Positions 30,101-36,985 of a stretch of DNA of 64,000 nucleotides are shown here, piece after piece. The notes beneath the pieces were generated by a model. That model saw nothing but the letters and a program-made list of their open reading frames with translations, searched no databases and had not been told where the DNA came from. Source of the stretch: Methylobacter sp. (lineage in GTDB: Bacteria; Pseudomonadota; Gammaproteobacteria; Methylococcales; Methylomonadaceae); contig JAUYMY010000060.1 of the NCBI GenBank assembly GCA_030699385.1, positions 62,001 to 126,000 of the forward strand. Direction: 5' to 3'. Position 1 is the first letter of the stretch. The number at the start of each line of letters is the position of its first letter. Made by a program: the position numbers and the translations under genes.

Positions 30101-30579
30101 TAGCCGAAGAAAGCGGCATGGATTTTCGCCGTCGGGTGCAAAAACGCATCGCCGAACAGCTGTTGTCTCAAACTAATGCGGTGCTGGAAAAAATCAGTGG
30201 CCGTTATTATCTGCGGCAAACGCCGAGCGAACAGGGTTTGGCGTTGGCGGTTGAAGATACTTATCAAGGCAATGTACAACGGCTGCCCAAAACTTTATCC
30301 GGTGGAGAAAGTTTTGTCGTCAGTCTGGCGCTGGCGTTGGGGCTGTCGGAGTTGTCCAATAACGGCAAGTCGGTGGACTCGTTGTTTCTCGATGAAGGTT
30401 TCGGTAATTTGGATGCGGAAACGCTTTATACCGTGATCAGCACCTTGGAAAGTTTGCATACCCACGGCAAAACCGTCGGCGTCATTTCTCATGTTGAAGG
30501 CGTACAAAAACGCTTTAAAGCCCAATTGCAAGTGGTCAAAAAGCCTAACGGCATGGGCATGTTGAAACAGGCGTCGTAA
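27136..30579 (+). CDS. sbcC: Exonuclease subunit SbcC (Rad50-like SMC ATPase)
   Basis: SbcC is the ATPase of the SbcCD nuclease, which cuts hairpins and protein-blocked DNA ends. The 1147-residue protein has a Walker A GPNGSGKSTILDAI near residue 45, long coiled coils, a zinc hook CFLC at 573-576, the signature LSGGESFVVSLALAL and Walker B FLDEGFGNLD. sbcD normally lies directly upstream; none is present here, where 270 bases without a supported gene precede it. Its stop overlaps the next gene by one base. Confidence 0.93.
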   Translation: MKILNIRFKNINSLEGESRIDFEQAPFSDTGVFAITGPNGSGKSTILDAITLGLYGETFRFDRPARHVMTQHTGECFSEIDFILDQEKYRSSWFARRHDANPEAELMPPEMKLLRLSDGEVLATTAQQVCSRITEITGMNFRNFTRSIMLAQGDFSAFLNALDNERMDILEKIISADIYTDYKNEVADKAAAAQQRLDYLQQDLSVIPLLEVAKREACEHDLSDFIEQKNELQQEQKLLKQQQSALQNRQALQQQISAQEKNLQQTQAVQAAEQQKLERLAAAQDALLFKDDADVIQEKSQELHQNKAALHDFRNELKQIQERVGSDTSAPADLPLKSFAEQGQTITGLKSQIGQLTGQQQSESDLWQALILQINEKKSVLATVSTWLEAHGADESLLDSFPETARLKNLRAELVELKEQQKTFAKWSKTTTTALKNNKSAVEQETKKIAELKLKLPLSEQALTELAQGRDLPELEDFLQEQQQRVKDFRELYNLAKANQRLSPSGFNFFGMFGRKESPSLDVDELTPQLDALNKDIGKEENIKKTLEMAVFHEALLKKMAGDRQHLVDGEPCFLCGASVHPYVDYPPKQTDSKQALADQKAKIKALSVAINKLEQQIKIAQKQSEKNQANLNELLKIRSQWLTLCNRLNTASEDLSINKLRLMKNLLQTEVGELTTIAKLVASYKRKQADIEQIKSAISEGEATIERLHLSIQQLDAEWQTRPQGEIDYDAVLASRQLEEQQLADKVIAQLTALGEKMPAKGKEDALFDRLNARRQDYQSYVLRQKALNDELETLTTKAEHCQVEIAGYNEKIARHSQQLHGEEIVGLHLALIEKQKLIADKEQFIVRLEAELNALKQALQYKIQGSQFATLHELTEVLALFEQRPELERHLAELEQEIDAKTIELDALRLELAAENTPNVSELSPEQLHSQLKGVSEKVDIANLEVQRLEALLAEQLQLQQKADALSLQLQEQQQAAQLCLAEAAEIAEESGMDFRRRVQKRIAEQLLSQTNAVLEKISGRYYLRQTPSEQGLALAVEDTYQGNVQRLPKTLSGGESFVVSLALALGLSELSNNGKSVDSLFLDEGFGNLDAETLYTVISTLESLHTHGKTVGVISHVEGVQKRFKAQLQVVKKPNGMGMLKQAS

Positions 30580-30596
30580 TGGCTCAGGCGGCAAAC

Positions 30597-31440
30597 ATGC
30601 CTGAACGAATTTTGCTATGCACCGACCTTGACCGAACCTTATTGCCCAACGGCAACGCACCGGAATCGGCGCAGGCCAGAGCGCTGTTTGCCGCTTTGGT
30701 GAGTCATCCGAACTGCACGCTGGTTTATGTCAGCGGACGGCATAAAGCGCTGGTGCAGGAGGCCATCGCCGAATTCAACTTACCCATACCGGATGTTGTC
30801 ATCGGCGATGTCGGCACCAGCATTTATCAAGTGGGTGCAGACGGCTGGCAGCAATGGCCGCAATGGATTACCAAAATCGCAGCTGACTGGGACGGATGTG
30901 AACAACCTGATCTGCAGTATTTGTTCGGCCATTTAGCCGAATTGACCTTGCAGGAAAGCAGCAAGCAAAACCGTTTCAAGCTCAGTTATTATGTGCCTAC
31001 GACTATCGATCCGAAACCGTTGTTAAGCGCCATGCGCCAATGTCTGGCACTGCATTCAATTCGCGCCGAGTTGATTTACAGCGTCGATGAGGCGAGCGCC
31101 ACCGGCTTGCTCGATGTGTTACCGGCTTCCGCCACCAAATTACCATGCCGTTGAATTTTTGATGCAGCAGCTTAGGTTTAGCTTGGACAATACCGTATTC
31201 GCGGGCGATAGCGGCAACGACCTGCCGGTGTTGACCAGTCCGATCAAATCGGTGCTGGTCGCCAATGCCACCGACGAGGTACGGAAACAGGCATTGCAAT
31301 TGGTGCGGGAACACTCGACCGAAACGGCGCTGTATTTGGCCAAAGGCGGCTTTATGGGCATGAACGGTAACTATAGTGGCGGTATTCTGGAAGGCGTCGC
31401 GCATTATTTACCTCGAATCAAACAGTGGCTTAACGCATGA
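30597..31440 (+). pseudogene. spp: Sucrose-phosphate phosphatase (HAD family), frameshifted
   Basis: The N-terminal part has the HAD nucleophile motif LLCTDLDRTLLPNG and VYVSGRH, then continues to LLDVLPASATK. There an extra T (31140/31141) throws the frame to a stop at 31152-31154. The remainder resumes in another frame as YHAVEFLMQQL...FAGDSGNDLPVL, the C-terminal HAD acidic motif, ending at 31440. Together they make a normal-length (about 280 residue) sucrose-phosphatase. Adjacency to fructokinase fits methanotroph sucrose metabolism. Either a real pseudogene or a one-base sequence error. An ATG at 30579 is also possible as the start. Confidence 0.75.
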
Positions 31441-32321
31441 CTAACAAACCCGTTATTGTTTTTGGCGAAGTCTTATTCGATCATTTCCCGGATGGCAGCC
31501 GTGTTTTAGGTGGCGCGCCGTTCAATGTCGCTTGGCATTTGCAGGCATTCCAGCAGCGGCCGCATTTCATCAGCCGGATCGGCGAAGATTCAACCGGCGA
31601 AACGATTAGCGCGGCCATGCGGCATTGGGCTATGGACATGACCGGCCTGCAACGCGATAAAAATCATCCGACCGGCAGCGTCAAAATCAGCATCGAGCAG
31701 GGCGAACCCGATTACAAAATCTTGCCGGAACAGGCTTATGACTATATCGACGCTGCGGCACTGGCAGCACCCGAAGGCAGCGGCTTGCTCTATCACGGCA
31801 CCTTGGCCTTGCGGCATCCGCCTGCCGCCGCCGCATTAGCGCAATTAAAGAGCCGTCATCAGGGCCGTGTTTTTATCGATGTCAATTTGCGCCAGCCGTG
31901 GTGGCATAAAGCCGATGTGCTGGGCTGGGTCAGTCAGGCGCATTGGGTCAAACTGAACCAGCATGAGCTGGCAGCGCTGTACCCGTCATCCGGCGGACTT
32001 GACGCCGACATGCGCGCCTTTCGTGCGCGTTATGGCTTGGACGGGCTGATTGTCACCAGCGGCGAACGCGGCGCTAGCGCAATCGACAACAACGGAACTT
32101 TGTTTAACGTCACGCCGCAAACCATCGTCCAAGTGGTCGATACTGTCGGTGCCGGCGATGCGTTTTCTTCGGTGCTATTGCTGGGGCTTAATCTCGATTG
32201 GCCGCTACCACTCACTCTGGAGCGCGCACAAGATTTTGCCTCGGCATTGGTCGGTCAACGCGGCGCCACGGTCAGCGACAGCGCTTTTTATCAAACCTTC
32301 ATCAAGGCTTGGGCGTTGTAA
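31437..32321 (+). CDS. PfkB-family carbohydrate kinase, likely fructokinase
   Basis: This 294-residue ribokinase-fold enzyme has an N-terminal VFGEVLFDHFPDG and GGAPFNVAWHL, a central INVNLRQPWW-like DVNLRQPWW, and the C-terminal signature DTVGAGDAFSS containing the catalytic Asp. Fructose is the likely substrate by family resemblance and by its place next to a sucrose-phosphatase. It overlaps the preceding gene by four bases. In Methylomicrobium a fructokinase belongs to a sucrose synthesis cluster; the synthase gene is not next to it here. Confidence 0.85.
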   Translation: MTNKPVIVFGEVLFDHFPDGSRVLGGAPFNVAWHLQAFQQRPHFISRIGEDSTGETISAAMRHWAMDMTGLQRDKNHPTGSVKISIEQGEPDYKILPEQAYDYIDAAALAAPEGSGLLYHGTLALRHPPAAAALAQLKSRHQGRVFIDVNLRQPWWHKADVLGWVSQAHWVKLNQHELAALYPSSGGLDADMRAFRARYGLDGLIVTSGERGASAIDNNGTLFNVTPQTIVQVVDTVGAGDAFSSVLLLGLNLDWPLPLTLERAQDFASALVGQRGATVSDSAFYQTFIKAWAL

Positions 32322-32332
32322 ATACGCTCGTG

Positions 32333-32851
32333 TCAACGCTCCGGCGGCGGTTCGTTGACTGCCAGCCAATATATTCCCAGTCGCGCCACGGTTTCAGAAA
32401 AATCGGCAAAATTTACCGGTTTACGGACAAAGCTGTTGGCACCGTTTTCATAACTTTTCAGCCTATCTTGCTGTTCGTCAGAAGATGTCAGCATCACCAC
32501 CGGCAGTAGCGCCGTGCGCGTGTTGGCGCGTAGCTGTTCGAGCACTTCCAGACCGGACAGGCGCGGCAGACAAATGTCGAGCAACACGACGGCGGGTAGC
32601 GCGGCACCTTGCTGTCCGGCAAACTCGCCTTCTTGAAACAGATAGTCGAGCGCCTGCTTGCCGTCGCGAACCACGTCCACTCGGTTGCCGAGCCCTGCGC
32701 GATGTAACGCCCGCAAAGTCGATAACTCGTCTTGAGAATAATTAACCGCAGATTCATAGTGAGTGGGTGATATACGGCTCAAGGCGCGCAGGGTCAGCAT
32801 TTCGTCTTGAGAGTTGTCTTCTACCAGCAAAATAATTTTGGAACTCATCAT
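32333..32851 (-). CDS. Response regulator (single receiver domain) with internal duplication
   Basis: The 172-residue stand-alone receiver of the Rcp1 type begins KIILLVEDNSQDE. It has the phospho-acceptor in VVLLDICLPRLSG (D92), the switch threonine in VVMLTSSD and the lysine in SFVRKPVN. A 25-residue unit is repeated: SQDEMLTLRALSR (14-26) and SQDELSTLRALHR (39-51), so helix 1 and the following loop are doubled compared with normal receivers. It overlaps the kinase gene by four bases, forming a two-component pair. Confidence 0.88.
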   Translation of the reverse strand: MMSSKIILLVEDNSQDEMLTLRALSRISPTHYESAVNYSQDELSTLRALHRAGLGNRVDVVRDGKQALDYLFQEGEFAGQQGAALPAVVLLDICLPRLSGLEVLEQLRANTRTALLPVVMLTSSDEQQDRLKSYENGANSFVRKPVNFADFSETVARLGIYWLAVNEPPPER

Positions 32852-34476
32852 TCAGTCTCCTGTTCGCCCGCCGACTTTGCGGGCATATCTGATAAAGTAA
32901 AATGGAACACCGCCCCTTTACCCGGTTCGGCGTGCGCCCCAATGACACCGCCGTGACGCTGTACGATGCGCTGCACAGTGGCTAGGCCGATGCCGATGCC
33001 GGGAAATTCTTCCTGGCGGTGCAAGCGCTGAAAAGGCTGAAACAGCCGGTTAACATGAGCCATATCGAAACCGGCGCCATTGTCGGCGACACAAAATCGG
33101 CGTTCGCCCTCTTTTTCTTCGGCATAGACGCGGATGCTCGGTGTCGGCTGGTGCGCGGTGTATTTCCAGGCGTTGTCCAGCAAGTTGCGCATCACCACCT
33201 TAATCATGCGCGCATCGCCCTGTACTTGAAGTCCCGCCTCGACCTGCACCGCCACTTGGCGTTCGGGAGCATTTTGTTGCAATTCATTCAGCAACTGCCC
33301 GGCAAGACTGGAAAGATCGATAAGGTCGTAGTGCAATTCGCCGCGTGTGCTGCGTGCGAGTGCCAGCAAACCGTCAATCAACTCGTTCATATTACGGCCG
33401 GCAAGGTCAATCTGTTCCAGATAAAGCTTGGCCTCGCCTTGCAACTGATGACCATAATCCTCGATCAGTGCTTGACTAAAACCGCACATGGCGCGTAGCG
33501 GCGCACGCAAATCGTGGCAGACGGCATAGCTAAAACTATCGAGTTCACGGTTGGTGGCGGTCAGTTCAGCGGTGCGCTCGATAACTCGACGTTCCAGATC
33601 GGCGTTAAGAAGGCGTATTTCGTTCTCGGCCAACTTGCGCGCAGTGATATCACGGGCAATGATTGAAACACCAACAATCTGTTCCTCTTTGTCCCGAATG
33701 GGAGAAGTTGATACGGAAACAATGATCCGACTGCCATCCTTACACATCCGCTCGGTTGCGTGAAATTTAATCGATTCGCCGCGTTGGATAGTAACAAGCA
33801 CTTTTTGCAGTTCAGCTTGATGTTCGGGAGGAATCAGCACGGATGCGCTGCACCCAATAATCTCCTCCGCCCGGTAACCAAACATTTTTTCCGCTGCTTG
33901 GTTCCAGCTAGTGATAATACCATCCAGCGTTTTGCTGATAATGGCATCTTCGGAGAATTCGACGATAGCCGCCCTGAGTATTCGCTCTTCTTGCAAGTTA
34001 TCTTCCGCCGCTTGCTTAGCCAACCTTAGCGATTCCTCGACACACTTGCGTTCGGCGATTTCGTTTTCTAGCGCTTCGTTAATCTGCCGCAACTGATTAG
34101 GCCCCGGAAGCCTTAGGGCATGAGGGAGCAAAGGCCAAAGCGCGATGGCGGTCACTACTGATATCAGTGCGGTGACTGCCTTTAACAAAGCATCAAGACC
34201 ATATAAAGGCTGCCACAGCACGATGGCTCCCATCAGGTGGGTGGTGCCGCAAGCCATGATGAATGCTGCGAACATCCACAACAGCCATTGATAAGGAAAA
34301 TCCTTGCGCCGCCGACCGAAATAAACCAGCGCCAACGGCATCGATGCATAGGCCAGGAAAATCAGGATATCGCTAATAACGTAGGTTAAAACCAGCCATG
34401 ACGACCAATTTAAGCAATAACCGTGGGGGAGATAATCGTTTACGGCAAGAAACTGATTGAGTTTGTCGAATATCAT
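32848..34476 (-). CDS. Hybrid-free sensor histidine kinase with ethylene-receptor-like membrane domain and PAS
   Basis: The 542-residue kinase has an N-terminal three-helix domain (about 30-115) that matches plant ethylene receptors: SDILIFLAYASMPLALVYF then FIMACGTTHLM. D36, Y43, P47, I73, C76 and H80 have the exact spacing of ETR1 D25, Y32, P36, I62, C65 and H69; C65 and H69 bind the copper cofactor. A PAS domain (about 165-280), HisKA with H321 (CHDLRAPLRAM) and HATPase_c (NLLDNAWKYT, GIGIGLATV) follow. The start at 34476 is preferred over 34518 because it matches family N-termini. Confidence 0.9.
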   Translation of the reverse strand: MIFDKLNQFLAVNDYLPHGYCLNWSSWLVLTYVISDILIFLAYASMPLALVYFGRRRKDFPYQWLLWMFAAFIMACGTTHLMGAIVLWQPLYGLDALLKAVTALISVVTAIALWPLLPHALRLPGPNQLRQINEALENEIAERKCVEESLRLAKQAAEDNLQEERILRAAIVEFSEDAIISKTLDGIITSWNQAAEKMFGYRAEEIIGCSASVLIPPEHQAELQKVLVTIQRGESIKFHATERMCKDGSRIIVSVSTSPIRDKEEQIVGVSIIARDITARKLAENEIRLLNADLERRVIERTAELTATNRELDSFSYAVCHDLRAPLRAMCGFSQALIEDYGHQLQGEAKLYLEQIDLAGRNMNELIDGLLALARSTRGELHYDLIDLSSLAGQLLNELQQNAPERQVAVQVEAGLQVQGDARMIKVVMRNLLDNAWKYTAHQPTPSIRVYAEEKEGERRFCVADNGAGFDMAHVNRLFQPFQRLHRQEEFPGIGIGLATVQRIVQRHGGVIGAHAEPGKGAVFHFTLSDMPAKSAGEQETE

Positions 34477-34649: not shown

Positions 34650-35369
34650 GTGGCAAATAAATCCAGTTATCCCCGTAAAAGTAAGCTCCATGCCTTATCT
34701 ATCAAGGACATCGTCCGTAAAGGGGCGCTTTATATCTTAATCACTTTTCTAGCAACATCAATCGGCCTGTGTGTGTTGTTGCGCTGGCTACCGGTGCCGA
34801 CGTCGGCATTTATGGTCTATCGGCATGTTGAAGATTTAATGGACGGCGGTTCGTTCAAGCCGATTCGCTATTCATGGGTTGATACCAAAAAAATCTCCAG
34901 TCATGCATTTTCCGCTGTTATTGCGGCCGAAGACCAGCGGTTTTTTCAGCACTCCGGGTTTGATGTGCAGTCGATACAGTCATCGATTGATGTGTACATG
35001 GACGGCGGCAAATTGAGGGGAGCCAGCACCATTTCCCAGCAAGTGGCGAAAAATTTATTCTTGACGCCTTCTAAAAGTTTTGTTCGCAAAGGCCTGGAAG
35101 TCTGGTTTACGTTATTGCTCGAATTAGTGTGGAGTAAAGAACGGATAGTGCTCGTTTATCTGAATATCGCCGAATTTGGCGACCACATTTTTGGCATAGA
35201 AGCGGCCAGTCGGCATTATTTTGGCATTCCGGCAAAGCAAATTAACCGCACTCAAGCGGCATTATTAGCGGCAACGCTACCTAATCCAATACTTTTAAAA
35301 GCGGCACAGCCTTCCGCTTATTTGCTAAAGCGGCAGCACTGGATACTGCAGCAAATGAAAAATCAGTAA
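34650..35369 (+). CDS. mtgA: Monofunctional peptidoglycan glycosyltransferase
   Basis: MtgA polymerises lipid II into glycan strands at the periplasmic face of the inner membrane. The 239-residue protein has one N-terminal membrane helix (ILITFLATSIGLCVLLRWL) and a GT51 domain with EDQRFFQHSGFD (catalytic Glu) and GASTISQQVAKNLFL. The start is a GTG at 34650. It has no transpeptidase domain. Confidence 0.94.
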   Translation: MANKSSYPRKSKLHALSIKDIVRKGALYILITFLATSIGLCVLLRWLPVPTSAFMVYRHVEDLMDGGSFKPIRYSWVDTKKISSHAFSAVIAAEDQRFFQHSGFDVQSIQSSIDVYMDGGKLRGASTISQQVAKNLFLTPSKSFVRKGLEVWFTLLLELVWSKERIVLVYLNIAEFGDHIFGIEAASRHYFGIPAKQINRTQAALLAATLPNPILLKAAQPSAYLLKRQHWILQQMKNQ

Positions 35370-35392
35370 GGCTTTTTAAGCCCCGCGTCTGA

Positions 35393-35398
35393 TATAAT
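35393..35398 (+). promoter_or_regulatory. Likely -10 box of the mlaA promoter
   Basis: A perfect TATAAT lies 47 bases upstream of the mlaA ATG. A clear -35 box is not seen. Confidence 0.4.
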
Positions 35399-35444
35399 TA
35401 ACGAATATATATCACCTCAACACCCAGTTAATAAGAGATAGACC

Positions 35445-36317
35445 ATGCGTATGCAAAAAAACACCCTCAACACACGTTTATTAATGAGCAGCCTGGTTAT
35501 ATCAAGTGTGCTTAGCGGCTGTGCCACTACATCAACTGTCAACGAACAAGATCCTTGGGAAGGCTGGAATCGCGGCACTCAAGACTTTAATGACAATATT
35601 GATAAAGCCGTTGTCAAACCGGTGGCAAAAGGCTATTTATGGGTGACGCCGGAATTTGTCAGCACCGGTATCACTAATTTTTTCAGTAATATGAATGACA
35701 TCGGCGTGACCGTCAACGATTTGCTCCAGCTTAAGCTAGTGCAAGCCGGCATGGATGGCAGCCGTTTTTTGATTAATACCACTGCTGGCGTCGCTGGTTT
35801 TGTCGATGTGGCAACGATGATTGACCTGCCCAAACATAATGAAGATTTCGGGCAAACGCTGGGGTTTTGGGGTGTGCCGACCGGTAATTATCTGGTGATG
35901 CCGTTTATGGGCCCCAGTTCACCGAGGGAAGTCGTAGGTGCCGTTGGCGATGCTTTGTTGAACCCTATTACTTATACTTTCGTTTTTGCCGGTAGCGGCG
36001 CAGCTGTCAGTGCCATCAATGCAGGTGCCAAAGCGGTTGATGTGACTGATACCCGTGCCGGGTTGATTGCAACAGAAAAGCTGGTTGATGAAGCTTCGGT
36101 CGACCGTTATTCTTTTATCAAAAATTCTTATCAGCAACGCCGAGAATTCCTGTTGCATGACGGTAATATTTCTGAAGATGATGATGTTCAATTAGAAGAA
36201 GAGGCCGCTGCGACACCTGCACCTATAACTAGCGCCACGCCTAGCTCTAGCCATAATGGTTTCGCGCCAGTCACCGACAATTCCAGGCATTTATTAAATT
36301 TGTCTGCACCTAAATAG
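35445..36317 (+). CDS. mlaA: Outer-membrane lipoprotein MlaA (VacJ)
   Basis: MlaA removes misplaced phospholipids from the outer leaflet of the outer membrane and passes them to MlaC. The 290-residue precursor has a lipoprotein signal with lipobox LSGC near residue 25. The MlaA core follows: DPWEGWNRGTQDFNDNID, FFSNMNDIGVTVNDLLQ, GVAGFVDVATMIDLPKHNEDFGQTLGFWGVPTGNYLVMPFMGPSSPR (core only quoted as GQTLGFWGVPTGNYLVMPF). The low-complexity tail after residue 245 is rich in Ala, Thr, Pro and Ser. The rest of the Mla system is not in the window. Confidence 0.95.
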   Translation: MRMQKNTLNTRLLMSSLVISSVLSGCATTSTVNEQDPWEGWNRGTQDFNDNIDKAVVKPVAKGYLWVTPEFVSTGITNFFSNMNDIGVTVNDLLQLKLVQAGMDGSRFLINTTAGVAGFVDVATMIDLPKHNEDFGQTLGFWGVPTGNYLVMPFMGPSSPREVVGAVGDALLNPITYTFVFAGSGAAVSAINAGAKAVDVTDTRAGLIATEKLVDEASVDRYSFIKNSYQQRREFLLHDGNISEDDDVQLEEEAAATPAPITSATPSSSHNGFAPVTDNSRHLLNLSAPK

Positions 36318-36332
36318 TCCGTTACGCGACAA

Positions 36333-36363
36333 CAGCAGAGATGCCGGTCTGGTGTCTCTGCTG
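36333..36363 (+). terminator. Terminator-like hairpin after mlaA
   Basis: CAGCAGAGA (36333-36341) pairs with TCTCTGCTG (36355-36363) over a 13-base loop and is followed by CCTTTCTTAT, a moderately T-rich tract 16 bases after the mlaA stop. Confidence 0.55.
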
Positions 36364-36538
36364 CCTTTCTTATCCCCCCCGTTTAAACGGTGTTGCGCTT
36401 AAATCCAACCCTTGTTTTTGTTAAGCAGTCATTAAGGTTATAACGAATAATATGACGCCAAAGGTTGTTACAGGCTAATCACCTATGCCGACTTCATGCA
36501 GAACAAAATTACATTATTTACCACGGGGTAAAATCACC

Positions 36539-36985
36539 ATGAAAAAGTCGCTTTTTTTAATACAGTTGATTGTATTTTCGCTTATTTATTCTTCGGCTTC
36601 TTTTGCTGACAGAGGCGGCCATTATGATCGGGGCGGTTACGGGCGTCCTATGTATGGGCACGGCCATAGACACGGATATTTGCCCCGGCCACAAATAATT
36701 TATTATGCTGCGCCACGGGTTCGTTATTATCCGGCTCCACCGCCACCCGTTTATTATTATCCTGCGCCTCCTGTTCACTACTATCCGCCGCAACCGCAGG
36801 TTCATTATTATCCACAACCAGCGCGTTATTCAGGTGACCAACGTTCGCACCAGGGCTTGGCAGGCGGCGTTGTCGGTAGTGTTTTAGGCTATGAAATCGG
36901 TAATGGCGATCCTCTCGCCACCGGATTAGGCGCTGCCGCGGGCTCTTTGTTGGGCAATGAAATGGGCGGCTATTCAAGAAGGTAA
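36539..36985 (+). CDS. Tyr/Pro-rich envelope protein with C-terminal glycine zipper
   Basis: The 148-residue protein has a cleavable signal peptide (KKSLFLIQLIVFSLIYSSASFADR). The middle is made of repeats of YYPAPPP and VHYYPPQPQ type. The glycine-zipper end (LAGGVVGSVLGYEIGNGDP, GLGAAAGSLLGNEMG) resembles the Rick_17kDa/SmpA-type outer-membrane anchoring segment. The ATG at 36539 begins the signal peptide and is chosen over the in-frame codon at 36485. Function is unknown; an envelope structural role is likely. Confidence 0.75.
   Translation: MKKSLFLIQLIVFSLIYSSASFADRGGHYDRGGYGRPMYGHGHRHGYLPRPQIIYYAAPRVRYYPAPPPPVYYYPAPPVHYYPPQPQVHYYPQPARYSGDQRSHQGLAGGVVGSVLGYEIGNGDPLATGLGAAAGSLLGNEMGGYSRR

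What the first reader, a model, noticed from the sequence alone, without database searches (positions are those of the whole stretch)
32848..34476. Sensor kinase with an ethylene-receptor-type copper site
The membrane domain reproduces ETR1 residues D25, Y32, P36, I62, C65 and H69 with identical spacing (here D36, Y43, P47, I73, C76, H80); only I35 differs (M46). Such domains occur in cyanobacteria and some other bacteria. In a probable methanotroph this is striking, because methane monooxygenases also oxidise ethylene and need copper.
Basis: partly seen in the sequence, partly recalled or inferred. Interest (0 to 1): 0.78.

Follow-up and report, generated by a model that had tools for sequence, protein, structure and literature searches.

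The report
Methanotroph ethylene-receptor-like kinase, methionine variant
A methane-eating bacterium carries a membrane sensor built like plant and bacterial ethylene receptors, with a conserved methionine at one position of the predicted ethylene site, so it probably senses ethylene, a gas that harms methane oxidation; this has not been tested in the laboratory.

Summary
Minus-strand ORF 34476-32848 (542 aa) is ETR1_N (126 bits, cut-off 27), PAS, HisKA, HATPase_c, overlapping by 4 bp a receiver-only regulator (32851-32333). D36, Y43, P47, I73, C76, H80 and K99 match ETR1; I35 is M46. The layout is that of AzoEtr1, a proven ethylene receptor, so the kind is known. New here: (1) M46 marks a subfamily of 16 among 228 EBDs, shared by methanotrophs and records named Accumulibacter, Polaromonas and Rhodocyclaceae, so it is not methanotroph-specific. 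(2) EBDs are frequent in methanotrophs: 116 of 201 genomes of the window's family against 9 of at most 365 elsewhere in the class; in a family of another class 7 of 11 PF02461-bearing genomes against 20 of 138 others; but 5 of 91 in a family of likely ammonia oxidisers, so a copper monooxygenase alone does not explain it. (3) D25 and K91 covary: all 14 EBDs with N or H at 25 lack K/R at 91. Ethylene binding by this protein is probable but untested; a retuned Cu(I) site is the boldest open reading.

The parts
32848..34476 (-). EBD-PAS-HisKA-HATPase_c sensor histidine kinase, 542 aa
   Evidence: ORF and translation; Pfam
34108..34395 (-). ETR1_N (ethylene-binding) membrane domain, aa 28-123
   Evidence: Pfam PF25487, 126.3 bits; three long helices in AlphaFold2 model
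34339..34341 (-). Met46 codon, at the ETR1 I35 position; subfamily signature
   Evidence: 16 of 228 EBDs have M here, the other 212 have I or L; it defines the group, so the count is descriptive
34237..34251 (-). C76-x3-H80, the predicted Cu(I) ligands
   Evidence: aligned with ETR1 C65 and H69; invariant in the 12 EBDs
33646..33975 (-). PAS domain, aa 168-277
   Evidence: Pfam PF00989, 73 bits
33343..33537 (-). HisKA domain with phospho-acceptor H321
   Evidence: Pfam PF00512, 38.7 bits; H321 located
32890..33219 (-). HATPase_c domain, aa 420-529
   Evidence: Pfam PF02518, 81.4 bits
32333..32851 (-). receiver-only response regulator, 172 aa, overlapping the kinase gene by 4 bp; D92, T122, K144 present
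   Evidence: best solved chain 5ic5 (E 1e-39), RcpA, RcpB and Rcp1 also matched
32663..32812 (-). in-frame duplication, copies 75 nt (25 aa) apart, of the first receiver helix (limits approximate, copies diverged)
   Evidence: also in G097, absent from L170, L079 and L172

Best explanation
A two-component ethylene sensor of the AzoEtr1 kind. Shown: the gene pair, the domains, the conserved residues and the subfamily. Inferred: the EBD dimerises in the membrane, holds Cu(I) at C76 and H80, binds ethylene (or another small olefin) there, and changes H321 kinase activity through the PAS domain; phosphate passes to D92 of the receiver-only partner, which acts by protein contact or in a wider phosphorelay. 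In this host it would most plausibly warn of ethylene, which inhibits methane oxidation and is co-oxidised to toxic epoxyethane. M46 keeps a hydrophobic contact at the ethylene pocket and may tune affinity or copper retention.
For: ETR1_N at 126 bits. Six of seven binding residues and K99. Same order of domains and same kind of gene overlap as AzoEtr1 (525 aa; 135-aa regulator overlapping by 8 nt; PMC11819568), whose EBD, 45% identical over 122 aa, binds ethylene. Catalytic boxes present. A kinase with a receiver-only regulator just downstream is kept in G097, Methylobacter sp. KS41, G094 (9-nt gap) and a Rhodocyclaceae MAG. EBD enrichment in the window's family and in PF02461-bearing genomes of a second class. 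Ethylene toxicity to methanotrophs: PMC11507031 (passages, including from the abstract).
Against: One of seven binding residues differs. I found no binding data for any M46-type EBD. The nearest relatives are partly records of groups not known as methanotrophs. Only 5 of 91 genomes of a family of likely ammonia oxidisers have an EBD, although AMO is a homologous copper enzyme. The PAS domain could be the real sensor. In the orthologues of the M. buryatense genus the plain regulator is replaced by a receiver-PAS-kinase protein. AzoEtr1 is not among the best 40 full-length matches to this kinase.
Confidence: 0.62

Rival explanations
1. The M46 subfamily is mainly a Cu(I) sensor: the thioether joins C76 and H80 as a third soft ligand, so the site reports copper supply rather than ethylene.
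For: M at 35 in 16 of 16 and M at 63 in 14 of 16 members, against 0 and 8 of 212 others; mean 4.25 Met in the membrane region against 1.88. The published ETR1 model puts I35 in immediate proximity to the ethylene clusters near copper (PMC6586836, passages).
Against: The Met counts are confounded by common descent, and M35 defines the group. The subfamily also occurs in groups not known to me for high copper need. No coordinates could be measured, so the Met-to-copper distance is unknown. D36 and K99 are kept.
Confidence: 0.15
2. The EBD is a vestigial membrane anchor that no longer binds ethylene because of I35M; the PAS domain is the sensor.
For: I35 is one of seven residues required in ETR1 by alanine scanning (PMC11819568, states seven residues; which seven is taken from the finding and from PMC6586836; the original paper was not held). 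Some other EBDs have lost C65 (2 of 154 rows) or P36 (5 of 154) (the window counts twice there).
Against: The other six residues are kept in 11 of the 16 subfamily members, and the five exceptions have only D25E, which suggests continued selection on the site.
Confidence: 0.17
3. The resemblance to ETR1 is a chance match of a generic membrane domain.
For: None found.
Against: E 5.8e-37 to ETR1_N; 28 invariant columns in the 12 EBDs aligned.
Confidence: 0.01

Closest known systems
AzoEtr1/AzoRR-etr1 of Azospirillum brasilense Sp7
   Same: EBD-PAS-histidine kinase of similar length, receiver-only regulator just downstream with overlapping genes, D, Y, P, I, C, H, K of the site; EBD 45% identical over 122 aa
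   Different: I in place of M46; kinase not among the best 40 matches; regulator 135 aa, here 172 aa with a duplicated helix
SynEtr1 of Synechocystis (PMC6682694 passages)
   Same: EBD with histidine kinase output that signals to a response regulator
   Different: SynEtr1 also senses UV-A light and has PAS, PAC and GAF domains
Plant ETR1
   Same: three-helix EBD with Cys/His Cu(I) site
   Different: carries a GAF domain and signals through CTR1 and EIN2 (passages of PMC12643061 and PMC7700396)
Rcp1-type single-domain regulators
   Same: receiver-only regulator matched by RcpA, RcpB and Rcp1 chains
   Different: duplicated helix 1; Rcp proteins are partners of phytochromes (chain names, otherwise recalled)

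Membership tests
Pfam ETR1_N (PF25487) | score above the curated cut-off of 27 bits | tested here: met
   126.3 bits
Ethylene receptor (ETR1/AzoEtr1/SynEtr1) | all seven residues D25, Y32, I35, P36, I62, C65, H69 | tested here: not met
   six of seven; I35 is M46
Ethylene receptor (ETR1/AzoEtr1/SynEtr1) | three transmembrane helices | tested here: met
   helices 26-56, 63-86, 92-121, pLDDT 88; membrane insertion itself not tested
Ethylene receptor (ETR1/AzoEtr1/SynEtr1) | saturable ethylene binding | not testable with these tools
   needs 14C-ethylene assay
Ethylene receptor (ETR1/AzoEtr1/SynEtr1) | Cu(I) bound at Cys and His | not testable with these tools
   residues present; metal not measured
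Two-component system | kinase with phospho-His and ATPase boxes, partner receiver with phospho-Asp | tested here: met
   H321, boxes at 431, 464, 493; D92, T122, K144
Two-component system | phosphotransfer between these two proteins | not testable with these tools
   gene overlap only
Methanotroph genome | particulate methane monooxygenase | tested here: met
   PF02461 at 434 bits, C40; pmoB and pmoC not searched; PmoA rather than AmoA inferred from the family, which holds named methanotrophs (contig lengths)

The most novel reading that the evidence does not exclude
The M46 subfamily is a retuned copper site (Cys-His-Met), giving a membrane kinase that reads Cu(I) supply and ethylene together; in methanotrophs such EBD sensors would couple copper status and olefin stress to methane oxidation. 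More widely, methanotrophs of two classes have recruited EBDs as an ethylene alarm.
Probability: 0.15. Interest if true: 0.78.

Novelty: new variant of a known kind. Interest (0 to 1): 0.47.

Why it matters
Ethylene at 3-50 ppm strongly inhibited methane oxidation in several forest soils, and methane monooxygenase turns it into toxic epoxyethane (PMC11507031, passages). If methanotrophs sense ethylene at lower levels, plants and soil microbes could signal to the organisms that limit methane release. The kinase has an orthologue in Methylotuvimicrobium buryatense 5G (L173, 60% identity over 531 aa), so the question is directly testable. The natural N25/D-E91 charge-swapped EBDs also offer a check on the modelled D25-K91 contact of ethylene receptors.

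Tried and rejected
Chance match: rejected by the profile score and shuffles. Solved structure of the EBD: none by sequence (one hit, E 0.17, another protein) or by Foldseek (0 of 55 matches with E <= 0.001). Measuring the Met46-to-C76 distance: the model gives no coordinates, so not done. Plasmid PmoA as a bait for alphaproteobacterial methanotrophs: 5 records, Methylomagnum and actinobacteria, so I used a phylum sample instead. Structure of the regulator: 4-row alignment, mean pLDDT 70, residues 27-38, 53-55 and 159-172 under 50, so no conclusion. Literature: of eight searches four used methanotroph terms: 3 papers, all listed; 15 of 27 listed; 10 of 705 listed; 8 of 13 listed. No listed title or abstract start is about an ethylene receptor in a methanotroph; these are listings, partly capped, of an open-licence library. 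Wang 2006, Lacey and Binder 2016 and the 2023 PNAS paper were not held.

Results against the reading: the closest EBD found outside the genus is from a group not known as methanotrophic; the likely ammonia oxidisers have EBDs in 5 of 91; genome size, habitat and number of sensor kinases were not controlled for; the 11 PF02461-bearing genomes of the second class fall in three genera (the 7 with EBD in two of them), so the Fisher value of 6e-4 overstates independence. Likewise the 201 family genomes are one clade. That set holds only matches that one search listed (its list was cut) or that searches gave (46 kept the best 80 of 547), so weakly conserved EBDs are under-sampled.

Full report
What is there. 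The gene runs on the minus strand from 34476 to 32848 and encodes 542 aa. Pfam finds ETR1_N at residues 28-123 (126.3 bits, cut-off 27), PAS at 168-277, HisKA at 314-378 and HATPase_c at 420-529. Four bases of overlap join it to a 172-aa receiver-only regulator at 32851-32333. The kinase has H321 and the ATPase boxes; the regulator has D92, T122 and K144. AlphaFold2 with 70 sequences gives three long helices in the EBD (pLDDT 88). No solved EBD was found.

The host. The window lies in a 3.57-Mb genome (84 contigs, 87.8% complete) with one PF02461 protein at 434 bits and two more EBD proteins: a kinase with two PAS regions (C29) and a PAS-GGDEF-EAL protein (C56). The window itself has genes that look like malyl-CoA lyase, malate thiokinase, serine-glyoxylate aminotransferase and hydroxypyruvate reductase (read from the ORFs, not searched). 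This fits a gammaproteobacterial methanotroph; G010, G136 and G090 of the same family match contigs of Methylotuvimicrobium buryatense 5G, Methylobacter sp. KS41 and Methylobacter marinus A45 by length.

Closest proven relative. The EBD is 45% identical over 122 aa to that of A. brasilense Sp7 plasmid ABSP7_p1. The ORF there is 525 aa with a 135-aa regulator overlapping its end, the lengths given for AzoEtr1 and its regulator in PMC11819568. That paper reports 14C-ethylene binding by AzoEtr1(1-130) and little or no binding in disruptants. The architecture is thus known; AzoEtr1 is not among the best 40 full-length matches to the window's kinase.

The methionine. The 16 form one supported group in the EBD-PAS tree (26 rows, SH-aLRT 97, quick method; the tool warns of long branches, among them L174): the window, G097, G136 (KS41), G094, five genomes of the genus of M. 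buryatense 5G, and seven records named Rhodocyclaceae (three), Candidatus Accumulibacter, Polaromonas, Rhodoferax and Burkholderiaceae. On a common 104-column block the window's EBD is 91% identical to G097's, 84% to Accumulibacter's and 80% to G094's. Position 63, next to I62, is M in 14 of the 16 and in 8 of 212 others; position 71 is M in 12 of 16 and 69 of 212. In the published ETR1 model I35 lies in immediate proximity to the ethylene clusters near copper (PMC6586836, passages). Whether M46 touches copper is inference. The subfamily's EBD-PAS unit drives different outputs: kinase plus receiver (window, G097, KS41, G094, L172), kinase plus a receiver-PAS-kinase (L173), GGDEF-EAL (L171), and others.

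Methanotroph link. EBDs over the cut-off: 116 of 201 genomes in the window's family, 12 of 369 in a class-wide sample, of which 3 belong to the window's order, leaving 9 of at most 365, and 28 of 398 in a phylum-wide sample. In the family of G740, a genome of another class (probably Alphaproteobacteria) reached through PF02461, 11 of 149 genomes have PF02461; 7 of these 11 and 20 of the other 138 have an EBD (Fisher 6e-4, not corrected for kinship). In the family of G525, where 15 of 18 genomes tested carry PF02461 (five of the 18 were chosen because they have an EBD, and four of those five carry PF02461), 5 of 91 have an EBD, one of them only a partial match. So the enrichment goes with methanotrophy in two lineages but not with copper monooxygenases in general.

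Covariation. Across the 228 EBDs, the 14 with N or H at D25 all lack K or R at K91 (6 N-D, 5 N-E, 1 N-A, 2 H-L); of the other 214 only one does (D-M). In one parsimony reconstruction on a FastTree tree the changes to N or H and the loss of K91 fall on the same three branches, while three changes to E or G at 25 leave K91, and three K-to-R and one K-to-M change at 91 leave D25. The pair ranks 8th of 8256 column pairs by corrected mutual information. A D25-K91 bond had been predicted by modelling (PMC11819568). The window protein keeps D36-K99.

The regulator. An in-frame duplication with copies 75 nt apart repeats the first receiver helix. It is shared with G097 but absent from L170, L079 and L172. 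Its effect is unknown.

Verdict. What is new, as far as my searches show, is the M-type site, the frequency in methanotrophs, and the D25-K91 covariation.

Noticed in passing
window 32663-32812 (-): In-frame duplication (copies 75 nt apart) of the first receiver helix in the partner regulator; shared with G097, absent in three other orthologous regulators.
   Followed up: partly
EBDs L073, L075, L120, L125, L128, L131, L132, L135, L137, L144, L155, L159 (N25) and L133, L164 (H25): EBDs with D25 changed to N or H all lack K or R at 91, 11 of 14 with D or E there: a natural charge swap between helices 1 and 3.
   Followed up: yes
window 30579-31440 (+): Sucrose-phosphate phosphatase matches are split over two overlapping ORFs in different frames; a frameshift or sequencing error is possible.
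   Followed up: partly
window 31437-32321 (+) and L067 1-1623: The kinase pair sits beside sugar genes: a pfkB kinase after the sucrose-phosphatase pieces here, an alpha-amylase-family gene in G097.
   Followed up: no
L067 and window 34650-36985: The genes upstream of the kinase (transglycosylase by Pfam; a lipoprotein and a short protein, not searched) are matched in order in G097 but not in the other loci compared, which are short.
   Followed up: partly
L066 (Novosphingobium sp. ES2-1 plasmid p2): An EBD kinase and a regulator lie close to a cas9 gene on a plasmid typed as conjugative, so EBD sensors may travel.
   Followed up: no
L116, L149 (family EBD set): Two EBDs have lost the copper cysteine (F and G at C65) while keeping the histidine.
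   Followed up: no
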